Made by a program: the position numbers and the translations under genes
DNA from: a virus
Strand: one strand, 5' to 3'
DNA: 35,197 nt
IMG/VR virus record: IMGVR_UViG_3300036770_001490
Coordinates: 1 to 35,197 of that record
The notes under the pieces: model-generated
The model's input: only the letters and a program-made list of their open reading frames with translations
The model's database searches: none
What the model was told of the DNA's origin: nothing
Shown: positions 8,578 to 25,795 of the stretch, piece by piece
How the letters are laid out: each line of letters opens with the position of its first letter
How positions within the stretch are numbered: position 1 is the first letter of the stretch

Positions 8578-8870
8578 TACCACTTCACCTTATCAGCCCA
8601 GTACGCCGCGCTCATCTTGCCCTTGGCAATGTTTGATCCGTGACGCGCTTTAAACGATTTACGCTTTGCCTTCATACGATCAGACTCACCCGCCTTGGGC
8701 TTTCCTGCCGTACCAGATACAGTTCCAACTTTTTTACCCTGCTGCCCAAAGCGAATGACCTTCTCCTTGCCGCCCTCGCAAGCCTTCACAATGTGCGACT
8801 TCTTGGGGTGGGTCGGGGTAGCCCGAGGCGAGTTGCATTGCATCCCCGACTTTTTGACAGGCTTAACCAT
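8577..8870 (-). CDS. Conserved Lys-rich protein ending YWADKVKW
   Basis: 97 aa from ATG at 8870; a TTG two codons upstream is a weaker alternative. It contains CNSPRATPTHPKKSHIVKAC, then EGGKEKVIRFGQQG, and ends SFKARHGSNIAKGKMSAAYW. I recall this protein as very widespread in uncultured phages, always as a short conserved hypothetical. Cys residues near 10 and 28 and a conserved His could form a small metal site, but the spacing is not a standard finger. The start overlaps the glycosyltransferase stop by eight bases. Function unknown. Confidence 0.65.
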   Translation of the reverse strand: MVKPVKKSGMQCNSPRATPTHPKKSHIVKACEGGKEKVIRFGQQGKKVGTVSGTAGKPKAGESDRMKAKRKSFKARHGSNIAKGKMSAAYWADKVKW

Positions 8871-9606
8871 TGACAACCTGCCTTTCCTCTTCCATAGGTT
8901 TCAGAAGTGGGTACAAGAAGTCTTCACCAAACGCGCCTTCGAACTCGTGGACACCCATGTGTCCGAGTTTGATAGTCGGGTCTACCCAAGCGGTAAAGCC
9001 ATGATCATGGGCGCGGTCGCAGAAGATGTAGTCCTCGCCAATGTAGCCATCTGGAGTTGATTGGAAGTCAAAGAAGGACTGAAGCACCTTGTTGGTGTTC
9101 TGATCCATGTACTTCCATTCGGGGTGCGCGTCACGCAAGGTCTCAAAGACTTTGCGCTGGATCATCATGAAGCCTGTGCCTACGCGCTTAACCTTGACCA
9201 GCCCCATCTTGTCCATAAAGATGTTGCCGTTTTCGTCTTGATCGAGCGAAGAGAAGTAGACCTTCTCCTTCTTGCGAGCGGCTCCCACACCTGCCACGAT
9301 AGGCTTGGTCTGACTCCATGCCAATAGACGAATAACATCGTCCGCTTGGAACGTCATGTCTGAATCGACCATAAAGAGATGGTCGGCGTCTGACTCAAGG
9401 AATTCGTTGGCAATAATATTCCGCACTCGGGATACCACGGAGCATCCCGAGACATTGGAGATTTGAATCTGAATACCGTGTTGCTGCGCTTTGACGCAGA
9501 ACTCGGCAAGCGCAATTGCTAACTTGACCGAGACCTTAAAGTCATAGGCTGGCAACCCGATGAACAGTTTCTTGCCATGCAGGTTGAAGGAGGCTTCTGA
9601 TTGCAT
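8863..9606 (-). CDS. GT-A type glycosyltransferase
   Basis: 247 aa, ATG at 9606. After an opening strand (KKLFIGLPAYDFKVSVKLAI) comes VSGCSVVSRVRNIIANEFLE and then HLFMVDSDMTF, where D81-S-D83 is the DxD-type metal and nucleotide-sugar motif of GT-A glycosyltransferases. Later features are VGTGFMMIQRKVFE (acceptor loop), GEDYIFCDRAHDHGF (candidate catalytic ED region) and LGHMG. The enzyme would transfer a sugar from a nucleotide donor; the acceptor is not shown. Its place among head and tail genes suggests modification of a virion protein, though host-surface change is possible. No membrane segment is seen. Confidence 0.75.
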   Translation of the reverse strand: MQSEASFNLHGKKLFIGLPAYDFKVSVKLAIALAEFCVKAQQHGIQIQISNVSGCSVVSRVRNIIANEFLESDADHLFMVDSDMTFQADDVIRLLAWSQTKPIVAGVGAARKKEKVYFSSLDQDENGNIFMDKMGLVKVKRVGTGFMMIQRKVFETLRDAHPEWKYMDQNTNKVLQSFFDFQSTPDGYIGEDYIFCDRAHDHGFTAWVDPTIKLGHMGVHEFEGAFGEDFLYPLLKPMEEERQVVNG

Positions 9607-20979: not shown

Positions 20980-21189
20980 ATGAACACACTCGACGCTGTA
21001 GGTATCGCAGAAGGCTGGATCAACGCCGACTCAGAGGAGCAGGTCATCGAGGCATGGCAACTGCTCATCGATACCGGTCTCGCTTGGAGACTGCAAGGCT
21101 GGTTCGGTCGCACCGCATCAGAACTCATCGGGCAGGGCATCTGCCGTGAACCGCATGAGTCCCGCAATTCAACTCAGGAGGCATCATGA
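20980..21189 (+). CDS. Small conserved early protein, 69 aa
   Basis: ATG at 20980 after CAGGAGG, first gene of the rightward early operon. The product (MNTLDAVGIAEGWINADSEE, QVIEAWQLLIDTGLAWRLQG) contains DTGLAWRLQGWFGRTASELI, a pattern I recall from small conserved proteins of many phages with no known role. It is probably a helical bundle. The end, NSTQEAS, is simply the ribosome site of the next gene read in frame. Overlap with the next gene is ATGA. Function unknown. Confidence 0.7.
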   Translation: MNTLDAVGIAEGWINADSEEQVIEAWQLLIDTGLAWRLQGWFGRTASELIGQGICREPHESRNSTQEAS

Positions 21190-21407
21190 ACGTTCGTAAT
21201 TCCGATTTCTTCATCCTGTCCTGCTTCGCAGAGGACGTCCGGGCTATCCCCGGCATTCACCAACGCACCATCCCCGCAGCGCAGACGCTGGTGACCGTGG
21301 CTACCCGCTACCGTGACCGGCTGATCAACGCAGGGCATTCGCCTGAGATGGCGCTCTCCCTGCTCAATGACGTAGTCAACTCAATCCATTCAACTCAGGA
21401 GGCTTAA
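21186..21407 (+). CDS. Small early protein, 73 aa
   Basis: ATG at 21186, overlapping the previous stop by four bases, after AACTCAGGAGG. The product (MNVRNSDFFILSCFAEDVRA, HQRTIPAAQTLVTVATRYRD) is helical in its second half (SPEMALSLLNDVVNSI). Its last residues, HSTQEA, again come from the ribosome site of the next gene, so the same leader block was used twice. No family recognised and no motif seen; unknown function within the early operon. Confidence 0.65.
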   Translation: MNVRNSDFFILSCFAEDVRAIPGIHQRTIPAAQTLVTVATRYRDRLINAGHSPEMALSLLNDVVNSIHSTQEA

Positions 21408-21409
21408 CC

Positions 21410-21745
21410 ATGACCCAGCAAATCCACCTCTACGAACGCCTGTCCCACAAGTACCGCGATGGATGGCGCTACCTCGACGATGAGCAGTATGTCGGCACTG
21501 CCAAGGTGCTTGCATACCGGCGCGTCTCAGACGAGGGCATTGATGGCAACACCTACGCAACTCGGGTAATCGCTCCCTCTGCACTGCGCGGCGTCGATCT
21601 GTCCAACGCTATCGCAGACACACTGAGCGGTAGCAGTTGCCGCCATGAGCATGACTGCTGCGGTTGCCCCAGCACCTACGCAGATGTTCGCAGAGTATCC
21701 CGCCGCGAGTACGCCGTCTCGCTGCACACAACCTACAACGTGTAA
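21410..21745 (+). CDS. Early protein with CRHEHDCCGC motif
   Basis: 111 aa, ATG at 21410 after CAGGAGG. The N-terminal part (MTQQIHLYERLSHKYRDGWR) precedes a strand-rich centre and a Cys/His cluster, SSCRHEHDCCGCPS (about residues 77-90), which looks like a metal site, then VRRVSRREYAVSLHTTYN. I recall the C-terminal part from hypothetical proteins of phages and plasmids of Burkholderiales. Zinc binding is inferred from the residues. It precedes the SprT-like gene by 13 bases including an AAGGAGG site. Confidence 0.65.
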   Translation: MTQQIHLYERLSHKYRDGWRYLDDEQYVGTAKVLAYRRVSDEGIDGNTYATRVIAPSALRGVDLSNAIADTLSGSSCRHEHDCCGCPSTYADVRRVSRREYAVSLHTTYNV

Positions 21746-21758
21746 GGAGGCTTTCACC

Positions 21759-22325
21759 ATGCATACGAACCGTGAAGAATGGCTCAATGCCGCAGTCGAG
21801 GAACTGCGCCCGATCTTCGACTCAGTCAATCACCCGCTGCCCGATCTGATTCGGGTCACCTGCGGGTTCCCCTCTAGCCGTGCCAGAGCGAACAATCGAT
21901 TCATCGGTGAACACTGGTCACCGGCTGCATCGAACGACAACCATCATGAGATTCTGATCTCGCCTGTGGTTGACGATCCGCTTCAGGTGTTCTCGACGCT
22001 GGTGCATGAGTTGGCTCACGCCGCCACTGACGGTGACGGTCACGGCAGACGCTTCACCCAGTGCGTCCGCTCCCTCTGGCTGGAAGGCAAACCAACGTCA
22101 ACCTACGCCGGAGAGACGTTCAAGCAGAACTTCGCCGGTCTGCTCTCGGGGCTGGGCGATTACCCTCATGCGCGTTTAAACATCGAGGCGGTGCGGAAGA
22201 AGCAATCGACGCGAATGATCAAGGCTTGCTGCCCCGCCTGTGGCTACACCGTGCGACTCACCAAGTACTGGGCAGATCAGGGGCTACCTACCTGCCCGAA
22301 TGACCGCAACACCCTGTCCCTGTAA
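21759..22325 (+). CDS. SprT-like zinc metalloprotease
   Basis: 188 aa from ATG at 21759, placed eight bases after AAGGAGG; a longer frame from 21645 overlaps the previous gene. The centre has STLVHELAHAATDGDGHGRR: H83-E-L-A-H87 is HExxH and H95 in GHG is the likely third zinc ligand, as in SprT and Spartan. The C-terminus has KACCPACGYTVRL (Cys 157, 158 and 161) and a further Cys near 179, a probable zinc ribbon. Spartan-type enzymes cleave proteins crosslinked to DNA, so a repair or replication-fork role is plausible. It starts a cluster of protease-like genes with AAA+ and VWA partners. Confidence 0.78.
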   Translation: MHTNREEWLNAAVEELRPIFDSVNHPLPDLIRVTCGFPSSRARANNRFIGEHWSPAASNDNHHEILISPVVDDPLQVFSTLVHELAHAATDGDGHGRRFTQCVRSLWLEGKPTSTYAGETFKQNFAGLLSGLGDYPHARLNIEAVRKKQSTRMIKACCPACGYTVRLTKYWADQGLPTCPNDRNTLSL

Positions 22326-22344
22326 TTTTCATCGGAGGCTAACC

Positions 22345-23793
22345 GTGAACGACAATCAAAAACTCGCGCTGCTATCGTTGGCGCATCTCAATACCGTCCT
22401 GATCCAACAGAATCAGGCTCCATCCAACAGCAAGCAAGGCGCTCTCGCAGAGGTGCGTAAGCTGGTTGATGCAGGTGTAGTCAGCATGGACAACGTCATG
22501 AACGTCAAGCCACAAACCGTGGTCACCGGCGGCGTTGACAATGACCTGCGTGACCTGCTGAACGATTCGAATGCCAAGGCGCTCGACGCCGTTCGCGCAA
22601 GCAGCGTTGCCCTGCAAGAGGTTCGCAACCTGAACACGCAAGCGGCGAACGAGTTCGGCAAGTACCGCAGCGAGTTCAAAACTCTCGCTGACTCGCTGGT
22701 CTCTCGCGTCGATGCCATCAGCAAGCCGGACACTGCGCGTATCACCAACGAGATCACGCAGCAGGTCTCCGCACTGTTCGATCAGTTCCGCGAACAGGCA
22801 ACCCCGCAGCAGTTGAAGACCGTAGCGAACGCAGTGCCTAGCTTCGAACTGCAACGTGCCGCTGACGTCTTCGGTGAGACCGCTTGCCTCTACGATGGCG
22901 TGGACTTCGGTGACCTGCCTGTCGCAGTGTGGAACGACAGTGCAGCACCAGCGATTGTCGATGACTACGTCTTCAATCCGGCGCACCTGCACCAGTCACT
23001 GATCGCCCTCGACGATCCGCTACCCGACAACGTTTGGTTGGCAGGTGAGCGCGGCACAGGTAAGTCGGAGTTCGTAACGCAGGTTGCTGCGCGTCTCAAG
23101 CGCCGCTTGTACCGAATCAACTTCGACGAGGCGCTGGAACGTGCTGACTTCATCGGCGGCAACAGCATCGAGTCGGGTTCGGTTGTGTGGAAAGCAGGGA
23201 TCGTGGCTCAGGCAATCCAGCACCCCGGTGCAATCGTGCTGCTCGATGAGATCGGCTTCGCTCGTGCCCAGTCGCTGGCTGCGCTTCACGCTCTGTGCGA
23301 ACGCTCTCCGCACCGTGCCATCACCATCAGCGAGACCGGTGAGCGCATCGGTGTCGCGTCTCACGTTGTGTTCTTCTGCGCCGACAACAGCAACGGTCAC
23401 GGTGATAGCAGCGGCAACTTCGCTGGTGTTCGCGAACAGAACAGCGCGTTCATTGATCGATTCAGCTACACCCTGTACTTCGACTACCTGCCGCAGGATG
23501 ACGAGATCAACCTGATCGTCAACCGCACAGGCGTGACGCTCGACGCAGCGCGAATCATTGTGTCGTTCGCCAACGTAGCGCGTGAGAAAGCACGAGCAGG
23601 ACTGCTGACTCAGCCGCCTTCGTTGCGTCAGTTGTTCGCTTGGGCGCGTTCGGTCAAGAAGGGTTTGCCGGTACGCGCAGCGTTTCAGAACGCCATCATC
23701 AACAAGTTCCCTGCTGATTGTGCAGTCGAACTGGTCGGCGTTTATACGTCCCATATCAACGAGAGCGATTTCAAACTCGCACTCACCAAGTAA
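22345..23793 (+). CDS. MoxR/CobS-like AAA+ ATPase
   Basis: 482 aa from GTG at 22345, eight bases after CGGAGG; a longer frame into the SprT gene is excluded by this site. Residues 1-200 are helical and coiled (RASSVALQEVRNLNTQAANE). The ATPase follows: GERGTGKS (Walker A, about 234-241), ERADFIGGNSIESGSVVWKA (MoxR-type substrate loop), AIVLLDE (Walker B, about 296-302), VVFFCADN (sensor 1) and SAFIDRFSYTLYFDYL. Such ATPases drive VWA partners in metal insertion or protein remodelling. The metallopeptidase and VWA genes follow directly. A cobalt-chelatase role in a phage without other cobalamin genes is unlikely; protein remodelling is more probable. Confidence 0.8.
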   Translation: MNDNQKLALLSLAHLNTVLIQQNQAPSNSKQGALAEVRKLVDAGVVSMDNVMNVKPQTVVTGGVDNDLRDLLNDSNAKALDAVRASSVALQEVRNLNTQAANEFGKYRSEFKTLADSLVSRVDAISKPDTARITNEITQQVSALFDQFREQATPQQLKTVANAVPSFELQRAADVFGETACLYDGVDFGDLPVAVWNDSAAPAIVDDYVFNPAHLHQSLIALDDPLPDNVWLAGERGTGKSEFVTQVAARLKRRLYRINFDEALERADFIGGNSIESGSVVWKAGIVAQAIQHPGAIVLLDEIGFARAQSLAALHALCERSPHRAITISETGERIGVASHVVFFCADNSNGHGDSSGNFAGVREQNSAFIDRFSYTLYFDYLPQDDEINLIVNRTGVTLDAARIIVSFANVAREKARAGLLTQPPSLRQLFAWARSVKKGLPVRAAFQNAIINKFPADCAVELVGVYTSHINESDFKLALTK

Positions 23794-23802
23794 GGAGGTC
23801 AT

Positions 23803-24789
23803 ATGTTGGCAATCGAGGTGAAACGCGGCGTTGCCGCCACACTGGAGCGCGTGTTCAGCGCGACAGGCAACAAGTTCGATGAACTGTCTATCGCTTGGTC
23901 AGGCAGGACTGCCGGTATCAAGCGGGACGGTAAGAAGACCACGATCCTGTTCCCCAGCATCGATGAGACCAAACCTGTCTCGCAGACGCTGTTCAATGAA
24001 CTGATCGGGTACGCACTGCATGAACTGGGTCACGCATGGTTCACGCAGGACAAACCTTGGGATGATGCGCGAATCGATCACGGTGACTATGTGTCGATGC
24101 TGATCAACGGTCTTGAAGACCCGCGCATCGAACAGTGCGTCATCAACTCAGGCTACGCACCCAACAGCCGCTCACTGTTTGAGTTCCTGACTAATCAGGT
24201 GCTACGCAAGGGCGGCTACGTTCAGCCGGATGACTTCAAGAACTTCCCGTTCTTACTCGCTATCGAGGGTCGGCGTTTAAACGGCTACTCGATCTGCGTC
24301 GAGTCGGTAGTCGATGCATCACCCTACGCAGTTCACCTGCGCTGGGCGTTGACTGAGGCACACAAGGCAACCAGCACCAAGCGGATCGTCACGATTGCCA
24401 TTGAGTTGTACGAGCGACTGAAGCAACGCCGCGAGGAACTCAAGAAGCAACCGCAGCAAGACCAGCAAGACCAGCAGCAAGACCAGCAGCAAGACCAGCA
24501 GCAAGACCAGCAGGACGCGCAGGACAATCAGTCCGATGGGTCTGAGACGCCTCAGAACGGCGCAGGAGACGCGAACGGTGACGAGGCTGGTCAAGATGAG
24601 GGTCAACCAAACGATCAGCCCAGTGACAAACCCAGCGATGGTTCAGGTCACCGCGAACCGATTGGGCGCAACCCCGAGTTGACTGACTTCATCAATGATC
24701 AGTGCGGTGAAATCAAATCGGTTGCAGATGAGGCGCGTGATCGTCCTCATGCAGGTAAGCCGATCTACTTGGACTTTCACTTTCGATAG
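23803..24789 (+). CDS. CobT-like metallopeptidase half with Gln/Asp linker
   Basis: 328 aa, ATG at 23803 after AAGGAGG. The N-terminal 200 residues contain GYALHELGHAWFTQDK with HExxH at 73-77 and, 25 residues on, INGLEDPRIEQCVI (103-110), whose Glu is a likely third zinc ligand. This layout matches the putative metallopeptidase domain found before VWA domains in bacterial DUF2201-type proteins. The C-terminal third is a low-complexity Gln/Asp linker (residues about 217-245) and an acidic tail. In CobT-type proteins such a linker leads directly into a VWA domain, but here the gene ends and the VWA is the next gene. Protease activity is inferred. Confidence 0.72.
   Translation: MLAIEVKRGVAATLERVFSATGNKFDELSIAWSGRTAGIKRDGKKTTILFPSIDETKPVSQTLFNELIGYALHELGHAWFTQDKPWDDARIDHGDYVSMLINGLEDPRIEQCVINSGYAPNSRSLFEFLTNQVLRKGGYVQPDDFKNFPFLLAIEGRRLNGYSICVESVVDASPYAVHLRWALTEAHKATSTKRIVTIAIELYERLKQRREELKKQPQQDQQDQQQDQQQDQQQDQQDAQDNQSDGSETPQNGAGDANGDEAGQDEGQPNDQPSDKPSDGSGHREPIGRNPELTDFINDQCGEIKSVADEARDRPHAGKPIYLDFHFR
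24453..24515 (+). repeat. Short tandem CAGCAAGAC repeats coding Gln-Gln-Asp
   Basis: A run of CAGCAAGACCAG-type 12-mers encodes repeated QQDQ in the linker of the metallopeptidase-like protein. Copies are almost identical at DNA level, so unit number probably varies by slippage between relatives. It is coding and in frame, and is not a CRISPR. Confidence 0.8.
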
Positions 24790-24797
24790 GAGGGCAT

Positions 24798-25616
24798 ATG
24801 CCTACAATCAACAAGATCGAATGCGAGGTACGCTACGAGCGCGATCTCGCCAACGTGCCGCAGGGCATGGCAGCAACTCGCACCAACCTGCAACGACTGC
24901 TGCACTCCATCGACTTTGTCGGCTGGAGCAAGAGCGAGGAGTCAGGCAAACTGGATCGACGCGCACTCACCAAGTTCGCTAACGGTTCGGTCAACGTCTT
25001 CTCTCGCCGCGAACACGTTCAGGCAGAGACCTCCGCAGTGTCGATCCTGATCGACTGCTCTGGCTCAATGAATGATGGCAGCACCGTGGCAAACGACTTT
25101 ACCTCACGCATTCGTATCGCGCAGCAGATCAGCATCCAACTGTCCAAGATGCTCCAGCAAGCGCGTGTACCGTTTGCAGTGACCGGCTTTAGGAACGGTG
25201 TTTCAGACTACCTCGGCAACGGCGGTTCAACCGAGCGCCCTCACTTCATACCGTTTAAACCGTGGCGCAAGACATTGCAGCAGTCGATAGCTACGCTTGG
25301 TGCGATCTCCAGTTGCGCTCAGGGCGGCACTCCTGACTACACTGCGATTGCCAACGCTATCGAGGAGTTGTCGCTGCGTCCTGAGCATCGACGCATTCTG
25401 TTCATCCTGACTGACGCAGAGGGTTATGTGCGTGAGCATATGCAGCACCTGCAAAATGTTGCCGACAAACTGGGCGTTGTGATCGTTGCTATCGGCATCC
25501 AGTCGCTCAGTGTGACGCGCTGCTTCAGGAATTCGGTCAACGTGGACAACTTGCAAGACCTCTGCAAGACTGCGTTCAATCAACTGCTCAAGGTTGTTCA
25601 GCGAGGTGCAAAATGA
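24798..25616 (+). CDS. VWA-domain protein (CobT C-terminal half)
   Basis: 272 aa, ATG at 24798 after AGGAGG, eight bases past the previous stop. Residues 1-80 (IECEVRYERDLANVPQGMAA) include a helical linker. The von Willebrand A domain follows with a complete metal site: ILIDCSGSMNDGS (D86-x-S88-x-S90), QGGTPDYTAI (T178) and FILTDAEGY (D206). The fold would bind partner proteins through Mg at this site and be moved by the AAA+ ATPase two genes upstream. With the previous protein it makes a CobT-like polypeptide of about 600 residues in two pieces. The strong ribosome site shows that the split is real and not a sequencing frameshift. Confidence 0.8.
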   Translation: MPTINKIECEVRYERDLANVPQGMAATRTNLQRLLHSIDFVGWSKSEESGKLDRRALTKFANGSVNVFSRREHVQAETSAVSILIDCSGSMNDGSTVANDFTSRIRIAQQISIQLSKMLQQARVPFAVTGFRNGVSDYLGNGGSTERPHFIPFKPWRKTLQQSIATLGAISSCAQGGTPDYTAIANAIEELSLRPEHRRILFILTDAEGYVREHMQHLQNVADKLGVVIVAIGIQSLSVTRCFRNSVNVDNLQDLCKTAFNQLLKVVQRGAK

Positions 25617-25795
25617 AACTGCTGAACAGTCAGGGCGTGGAGGTCAAGACCGGGGACATACTGCATGGAAAGAAACAGTATGTTTTCCTCGGTCACGATG
25701 GGAAGATGATCAACGTCCAAACAATGGATGAGCGGCGTCTGTACTCATGGGTTGATCCATCACGTTTCAAACTTTACTTCAAGAAGGATGAGTGA
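25613..25795 (+). CDS. Small early protein, 60 aa
   Basis: ATG at 25613, overlapping the VWA stop as ATGA. The product (MKLLNSQGVEVKTGDILHGK, KQYVFLGHDGKMINVQTMDE) looks like a small beta-barrel with regular strands and ends KLYFKKDE. I recall similar short proteins from phage genomes but no function. Coupled to the VWA gene, so it could be a partner or adaptor of that system. No metal site or membrane segment. Confidence 0.65.
   Translation: MKLLNSQGVEVKTGDILHGKKQYVFLGHDGKMINVQTMDERRLYSWVDPSRFKLYFKKDE

What the first reader, a model, noticed from the sequence alone, without database searches (positions are those of the whole stretch)
21759..25616. AAA+ ATPase, VWA protein and two metalloproteases in one early phage operon
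A SprT-like HExxH protein, a MoxR/CobS-like AAA+ ATPase, an HExxH metallopeptidase-like protein and a VWA protein with a full metal site are consecutive, each with a strong ribosome site. MoxR-VWA pairs are known to remodel proteins or insert metals, and also occur in bacterial conflict systems. A phage with no cobalamin genes is unlikely to use them for cobalt. An attractive idea is an ATP-driven protein-remodelling protease that acts on host or defence proteins early in infection.
Basis: partly seen in the sequence, partly recalled or inferred. Interest (0 to 1): 0.72.

Follow-up and report, generated by a model that had tools for sequence, protein, structure and literature searches.

The report
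Phage ATP-driven unfoldase–metalloprotease gene cassette
An environmental phage lineage always carries four neighbouring genes for an ATP-powered protein-remodelling machine and two zinc proteases; databases label its relatives 'cobalt-inserting vitamin B12 enzyme', but the phage proteins keep a protease active site that the genuine B12 proteins sampled here lack.

Summary
Window 21759-25616 encodes, in order and each behind a strong ribosome site, a SprT-like zinc protease, a CobS/MoxR-type AAA+ ATPase, an HExxH protein and a VWA protein with a MIDAS site. The HExxH and VWA proteins are the two halves of one protein that other phages encode whole, usually annotated 'CobT'. This AAA+ plus peptidase-VWA pair is already described (Iyer 2021; Liu 2021), so the kind is known. 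New here: (1) a split form fixed in one lineage of uncultured phages, with SprT upstream, in 55 of 55 complete loci (32 non-redundant) and in 14 of 14 informative terminase-selected contigs; (2) active-site residues almost invariant in all four proteins; (3) 0 of 72 genuine alphaproteobacterial CobT proteins have HExxH, although their N-terminal domain is homologous, whereas 74 of 74 cyanophage-type proteins and the sampled E. coli, Klebsiella and Acinetobacter phage-plasmid proteins keep it. No relative tested encodes CobN or ribonucleotide reductase. Best reading: an ATP-driven protein-remodelling protease rather than a cobalt chelatase. Its target is unknown; gene neighbourhoods and SprT's likeness to SPRTN point to DNA replication or recombination. 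'Early' expression and action on host defence are untested.

The parts
21759..22325 (+). SprT-like zinc metalloprotease, 188 aa (H83-E84-x-x-H87, H95; zinc-ribbon-like C158/C161/C179)
   Evidence: PF10263 19.3 bits, below cut-off 25.6; phrog_6361 E 9.5e-41; H83, E84, H87, H95 in 78/78; AF2 pLDDT 87; best PDB match SPRTN 6mdw Z 8.3
22345..23793 (+). CobS/MoxR-type AAA+ ATPase, 482 aa, GTG start; Walker A GERGTGK at 234-240, Walker B D301-E302, sensor N348, arginine R372; N-terminal extension of about 190 aa
   Evidence: AAA_5 2.9e-14, CbbQ_C; phrog_249 5.4e-46; TIGR01650 75 bits, cut-off 558; PDB: Midasin, CobS, NorQ, CbbQ
23803..24789 (+). HExxH protein (PEP), 328 aa: zincin domain 1-215 (H73-E74-x-x-H77, N102/E105/D106/E110), then a disordered Q/D-rich linker; equals the N-terminal half of phage 'CobT'
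   Evidence: AF2 pLDDT 81; M48, M56, M1 and SPRTN folds, Z up to 6.4; hhalign 99%, E 3e-19 to fused phage CobT N-termini
24798..25616 (+). VWA protein, 272 aa, MIDAS D86-x-S88-x-S90, T178, D206; equals the C-terminal half of phage 'CobT'
   Evidence: CobT_C 2.7e-6; phrog_1576 5e-20
21186..21745 (+). two small ORFs (21186-21407 and 21410-21745) immediately upstream in the same transcription direction; function unknown
   Evidence: similar small upstream + ORFs in a few relatives
25613..25795 (+). small ORF, 60 aa, overlapping the VWA stop codon; conserved in close relatives only
   Evidence: cluster 8, five loci

Best explanation
The cassette encodes a phage-type MoxR/CobS AAA+ - VWA - zincin machine whose usual single 'CobT-like' subunit is split into a metallopeptidase protein and a VWA adaptor, co-expressed with a SprT/SPRTN-like protease. 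Proposed mechanism: the VWA protein binds substrate through its MIDAS site, the AAA+ ring uses ATP to pull or remodel it, and the HExxH subunit cleaves it. SprT cleaves in parallel, most plausibly proteins bound or crosslinked to phage DNA. The likeliest role is clearing or processing proteins during phage DNA replication or recombination. Shown by computation: gene identities, intact active sites, homology of the split halves to one fused protein, lineage-wide conservation, absence of CobN. Inferred: complex formation, ATP-driven proteolysis, DNA-linked substrate. I hold the remodelling-protease identity at about 0.75 and the replication-linked role at about 0.4.
For: Catalytic residues nearly invariant in all four proteins. 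PEP and VWA are halves of one protein in other phages, which argues they act together with the adjacent AAA+. The PEP model is zincin-like; the SprT model matches SPRTN best. 0/72 cellular CobT keep HExxH although that domain is homologous (hhalign 96%, E 1.8e-9), against 74/74 cyanophage-type proteins. No CobN or ribonucleotide reductase in 10 large relatives. The fused homologue is frequent in enterobacterial phage-plasmids, and E. coli lacks CobN (control). Fused relatives lie beside DNA polymerase, primase/helicase, ligase, clamp or recombination genes. Core to its lineage.
Against: No biochemical or expression data. In Pseudomonas phage hairong, Stenotrophomonas phage BUCTxx99 and locus L150 the HExxH is degenerate, so cleavage is not essential everywhere. 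SprT is tied to the cassette only in this lineage: 0 of 52 loci with a SprT at 47% identity or less have the other three genes. Gene order of the whole lineage is conserved, terminase and primase-helicase included, so linkage of SprT alone proves little. PEP fold matches are modest (Z 6.4 or less). The replication-gene neighbourhood was noted by reading annotations, without a formal control.
Confidence: 0.5

Rival explanations
1. Virion-assembly chaperone-protease: the AAA+ and VWA proteins remodel structural proteins and the HExxH subunit trims them during maturation, as proposed for related pairs in group 2.2 jumbo phages.
For: Proposed by Iyer et al. 2021 (PMC7824862) for a MoxR + MPTase-vWA pair of the same architecture; an archaeal virus uses MoxR-vWA for tail assembly (cited there). 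Lineage-core status would fit.
Against: In this lineage the cassette is on the strand opposite to the structural genes and diverges from terminase. Fused relatives lie among replication genes.
Confidence: 0.22
2. Host-takeover or counter-defence protease: the machine unfolds and degrades host or immunity proteins during infection.
For: Two intact metalloproteases and a remodelling ATPase in a block separate from structural genes. MoxR-vWA systems occur in conflict systems (PMC7159879), and host targeting was proposed for jumbo-phage SprT peptidases (PMC7824862).
Against: Present in every informative locus of the lineage (14/14 by terminase), unlike typical patchy counter-defence genes. No PADLOC match of weight. 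No target evidence.
Confidence: 0.18
3. Cobaltochelatase helper: the phage CobS/CobT-like proteins join the host CobN to boost cobalamin synthesis during infection.
For: Published for archaeal and bacterial tailed viruses (Liu et al. 2021, PMC8651126). The AAA+ is related to CobS and the VWA to CobT_C.
Against: Scores far below the curated CobS and CobT cut-offs (75 against 558 bits; 21 against 759). HExxH kept in phages but absent in 72/72 cellular CobT. No CobN or RNR in relatives. Enterobacterial phage-plasmids carry it although E. coli lacks CobN.
Confidence: 0.07
4. Pure chaperone: the HExxH domain is a structural relic and the machine only remodels proteins.
For: HExxH is degenerate in hairong, BUCTxx99 and L150 and absent in the cellular CobT proteins sampled.
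Against: HExxH and the N/E/D/E motif are near-invariant in 75 PEP sequences diverged down to about 30% identity and HExxH in 74/74 cyanophage-type proteins.
Confidence: 0.15

Closest known systems
MoxR AAA+ with metallopeptidase-vWA co-chaperone of group 2.2 jumbo phages (Iyer et al. 2021, PMC7824862)
   Same: AAA+ of the MoxR clade next to a protein with an N-terminal metallopeptidase and a vWA domain
   Different: Here peptidase and VWA are separate genes, a SprT-like gene precedes them, and the genome is much smaller (largest relatives 56-62 kb)
Viral cobST cluster of archaeal tailed viruses and cyanophages (Liu et al. 2021, PMC8651126), including the split cobT of HHTV-2
   Same: CobS-like ATPase next to a CobT-like VWA protein; a split CobT was noted once, in HHTV-2
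   Different: That work read it as a cobaltochelatase and called the 'peptidase' annotation mistaken; the HExxH evidence here favours a peptidase. The split is lineage-wide and comes with SprT
Cellular aerobic cobaltochelatase CobN-CobS-CobT
   Same: AAA+ fold and CobS relatedness (PDB 9ujv); VWA C-terminus; homologous N-terminal domain
   Different: The 72 cellular CobT sampled have no HExxH; no CobN in the phages; scores far below the equivalog cut-offs
SPRTN / Wss1 DNA-protein crosslink proteases
   Same: HExxH plus a downstream His, zincin fold; SPRTN 6mdw is the best structural match (Z 8.3); a SprT protease beside an AAA+ unfoldase recalls the known SPRTN-p97 and Wss1-Cdc48 partnerships (general knowledge, not tested)
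   Different: No sequence match to PDB entries; different AAA+ family; no DNA-crosslink data
CobT/CobS-like pairs of enterobacterial and Acinetobacter phage-plasmids (about 110 kb)
   Same: HExxH-linker-VWA protein next to a CobS-like ATPase
   Different: Fused protein, gene order reversed (CobT before CobS), no SprT annotated in the stretches read

Membership tests
Phage MoxR AAA+ / metallopeptidase-vWA system | MoxR-clade AAA+ with intact Walker A, Walker B, sensor and arginine residues | tested here: met
Phage MoxR AAA+ / metallopeptidase-vWA system | vWA domain with intact MIDAS | tested here: met
   D86, S88, S90 in 59/59; D206 in 58 with one gap
Phage MoxR AAA+ / metallopeptidase-vWA system | HExxH metallopeptidase domain | tested here: met
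   74/75 sequences; zincin-like model
Phage MoxR AAA+ / metallopeptidase-vWA system | peptidase fused to vWA in one polypeptide | tested here: not met
   separate ORFs in the window and in all 55 complete relatives; hence a variant
Aerobic cobaltochelatase CobS/CobT | score above the NCBIfam equivalog cut-offs TIGR01650 and TIGR01651 | tested here: not met
   75.3 against 558.6 bits and 20.7 against 759 bits
Aerobic cobaltochelatase CobS/CobT | CobN large subunit encoded alongside | tested here: not met
   absent in 10 relatives of 42-62 kb; a host CobN could not be tested, host unknown
Aerobic cobaltochelatase CobS/CobT | N-terminal domain without HExxH, as in cellular CobT | tested here: not met
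   0/72 cellular CobT have HExxH; the window protein has it
Aerobic cobaltochelatase CobS/CobT | cobalt insertion activity | not testable with these tools
   needs biochemistry
SprT/SPRTN family | HExxH plus third His ligand in a zincin fold | tested here: met
   H83, E84, H87, H95 in 78/78; SPRTN Z 8.3, Wss1 Z 7.2
SprT/SPRTN family | Pfam SprT-like gathering score | tested here: not met
   19.3 against 25.6 bits; so it is described as SprT-like
SprT/SPRTN family | DNA-dependent protease activity | not testable with these tools
   needs biochemistry
MoxR-vWA ternary conflict systems (VMAP and related) | third component such as VMAP or beta-propeller protein | tested here: inconclusive
   bpMoxR only 13.8 bits; VMAP was not searched for specifically; no PADLOC match of weight

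The most novel reading that the evidence does not exclude
A phage-encoded, ATP-powered system that clears DNA-bound or DNA-crosslinked proteins (AAA+ unfoldase, VWA adaptor, zincin and SPRTN-like protease), analogous to SPRTN-p97 or Wss1-Cdc48. The widespread viral 'cobST' genes would be relatives of the same machine, and cellular CobT a descendant that lost its protease site when recruited to cobalt chelation.
Probability: 0.2. Interest if true: 0.85.

Novelty: new variant of a known kind. Interest (0 to 1): 0.52.

Why it matters
Viral cobS and cobT are repeatedly counted as vitamin B12 auxiliary metabolic genes, also in recent ecology papers (PMC13390420, PMC9503304). If the phage proteins are ATP-dependent proteases, those claims need revising. 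The genes are common: 501 phage records match the ATPase and 1025 plasmid records match the CobT-like protein. The split cassette offers a tractable form in which peptidase, adaptor and motor can be purified separately.

Tried and rejected
Profile searches of viral contigs with alignments of very divergent CobT-like proteins (A1, A2) failed for lack of conserved stretches. A scan with phage CRP-810 CobT found nothing. A scan of 84,980 cellular genomes with the AAA+ profile A3 gave no relative, so no provirus and no host clue. A direct profile comparison of cassette PEP with cellular CobT N-termini was not significant; the link rests on the fused phage proteins in between. The comparison of A4 with A2 is inflated because both contain the window protein and was redone without it in the fused set. 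DNA-level search in GenBank phages gave no match. Frameshift or sequencing error as the cause of the split: rejected, since the split is present in all 55 complete loci with varied reading-frame offsets. CobT did not appear among the PDB fold matches shown for PEP; this says nothing either way. The sigma-70 scan found no promoter, so timing stays open. No published description of the four-gene arrangement was found.

Full report
What is there. Intergenic gaps are 19, 9 and 8 bases in the window; in 32 non-redundant relatives the medians are about 25, 9 and 7. Family searches identify a SprT-like protein (phrog_6361, E 9.5e-41; Pfam SprT-like 19.3 bits, below its cut-off of 25.6), a CobS/MoxR-clade AAA+ ATPase (phrog_249, E 5.4e-46; AAA_5, E 2.9e-14), an HExxH protein and a VWA protein (CobT_C, E 2.7e-6). 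PADLOC gives nothing of weight.

HExxH and VWA are two halves of one protein. phrog_1576 (729 aa) matches the HExxH protein with its N-terminal part and the VWA protein with its C-terminal part. In phages T5S1, CRP-810, Mae-Yong1326-1, S-IOM18, ICP2 and Rhizobium phages one polypeptide of 580-836 aa carries HExxH, an acidic linker and the VWA, next to a CobS-like ATPase. Profile comparison without the window protein in the fused set joins the cassette HExxH domain to these fused N-termini (hhalign 99%, E 3e-19).

Conservation. A search with the AAA+ returned 80 viral loci. In all 55 where the four genes are seen, order and strand are identical and HExxH and VWA are always separate ORFs; 32 loci remain after removing AAA+ proteins over 90% identical. 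AAA+ identity to the window falls to about 45%. SprT H83, E84, H87 and H95 are kept in 78/78. Walker A G234, G239 and K240 are kept in 81/81, and D301, E302 and N348 in every sequence that covers them. PEP HExxH is kept in 74/75, the exception being L150. MIDAS D86, S88 and S90 are kept in 59/59. An independent test with the large terminase as query showed the cassette in all 14 contigs in which it could be seen; the others end too close to the terminase, and two with about 4 kb upstream (L298, L337) are uninformative because the terminase-SprT distance reaches 7.4 kb in relatives. The cassette lies between the minus-strand terminase small subunit (32/32) and a minus-strand primase-helicase (21 loci). 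It is thus a core module of the lineage, transcribed away from the structural genes. The same synteny means that conserved gene order alone is weak evidence of functional coupling for SprT: SprT relatives at 47% identity or less never have the other three genes (0 of 52). No relative of the AAA+ was found in 84,980 cellular genomes.

Structures. The HExxH protein model (pLDDT 81) gives mostly gluzincin-type metalloproteases as best PDB matches: ZMPSTE24, Ste24p, BepA, BlaR1, M1 aminopeptidases and SPRTN, with Z up to 6.4. These are modest but consistent. The SprT model (pLDDT 87) matches SPRTN best (6mdw, Z 8.3) and Wss1 at Z 7.2. The AAA+ profile finds Midasin, CobS and NorQ/CbbQ in the PDB.

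Chelatase or protease. Liu et al. (PMC8651126) read viral cobST as a cobaltochelatase helper that uses host CobN and called the 'peptidase' annotation of cyanophage CobT mistaken. Iyer et al. (PMC7824862) described a MoxR ATPase with a metallopeptidase-vWA co-chaperone in jumbo phages and proposed virion assembly. Evidence gathered here favours a peptidase. Seventy-two alphaproteobacterial CobT proteins, collected by a DNA motif of the VWA site, contain no HExxH. Their N-terminal domain is homologous to the fused phage N-termini (hhalign 96%, E 1.8e-9) and the HExxH position reads roughly D-[AS]-x-[AS]-L-[RK]. In contrast 74 of 74 full-length cyanophage-type proteins keep HExxH, as do the sampled proteins of E. 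coli, Klebsiella, Acinetobacter and Marinobacter plasmids. 1025 plasmid records match the CobT-like protein, mainly Klebsiella, Escherichia and Acinetobacter, and E. coli, one of the 14 control genomes, has no CobN. Ten large relatives of the window (42-62 kb) have neither CobN nor ribonucleotide reductase. The window proteins score far below the curated CobS and CobT cut-offs. Some phage lineages (hairong, BUCTxx99, L150) have a degenerate HExxH, so loss has happened more than once.

Function. The evidence fits an ATP-driven remodelling protease: VWA as substrate adaptor, AAA+ as motor, HExxH subunit as peptidase. The substrate is not known. Fused relatives sit beside DNA polymerase III alpha, ligase, primase/helicase, clamp and recombination genes, and SprT resembles SPRTN, which points to proteins on DNA; no formal control of that neighbourhood pattern was made. 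Virion assembly and host or defence targets remain open. Nothing here shows early expression. The host is unknown; the portal is nearest to phages such as HTVC027P, 023Pt_psg01 and DSL-LC04 (42-46% identity), which infect different bacterial groups.

Verdict. The system is a new variant (split, with SprT, lineage core) of a known kind, and the comparison with cellular CobT makes a standing annotation conflict testable.

Noticed in passing
window 24450-24520: The linker of the HExxH protein is a run of QQD-type repeats; in relatives the linker varies strongly in length and composition (PEP 297-395 aa) while the zincin domain is constant.
   Followed up: partly
L150 7429-8373; phages hairong (L015) and BUCTxx99 (L014): Natural variants with a degenerate HExxH in an otherwise intact system, usable as comparison for a protease-free form.
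   Followed up: partly
plasmid records, e.g. L289, L290, L292: About a thousand plasmid records, those read being about 110 kb (phage-plasmid type), from Klebsiella, E. coli and Acinetobacter carry an HExxH-VWA protein annotated as CobT or porphyrin biosynthesis, usually next to a CobS-like ATPase.
   Followed up: partly
L290 4753-8750: In this Klebsiella plasmid an IS3000-type Tn3-like transposase gene follows the CobT-like gene, where the CobS-like gene is expected.
   Followed up: no
L291 3054-3971: Marinobacter plasmid pMAQU02 has an AAA ATPase, a DUF3150 protein and an HExxH-VWA protein beside a lambda-type exonuclease gene; a DUF3150 protein may be a further partner.
   Followed up: no
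window 1-35197: The record is probably incomplete: the largest relatives with the same cassette are 56-62 kb; the terminase-to-SprT interval varies from about 3.4 to 7.4 kb.
   Followed up: partly
window 8863-9606 (-): A glycosyltransferase-like gene (phrog_1574 and weak glycosyltransferase families) lies among the structural genes.
   Followed up: no
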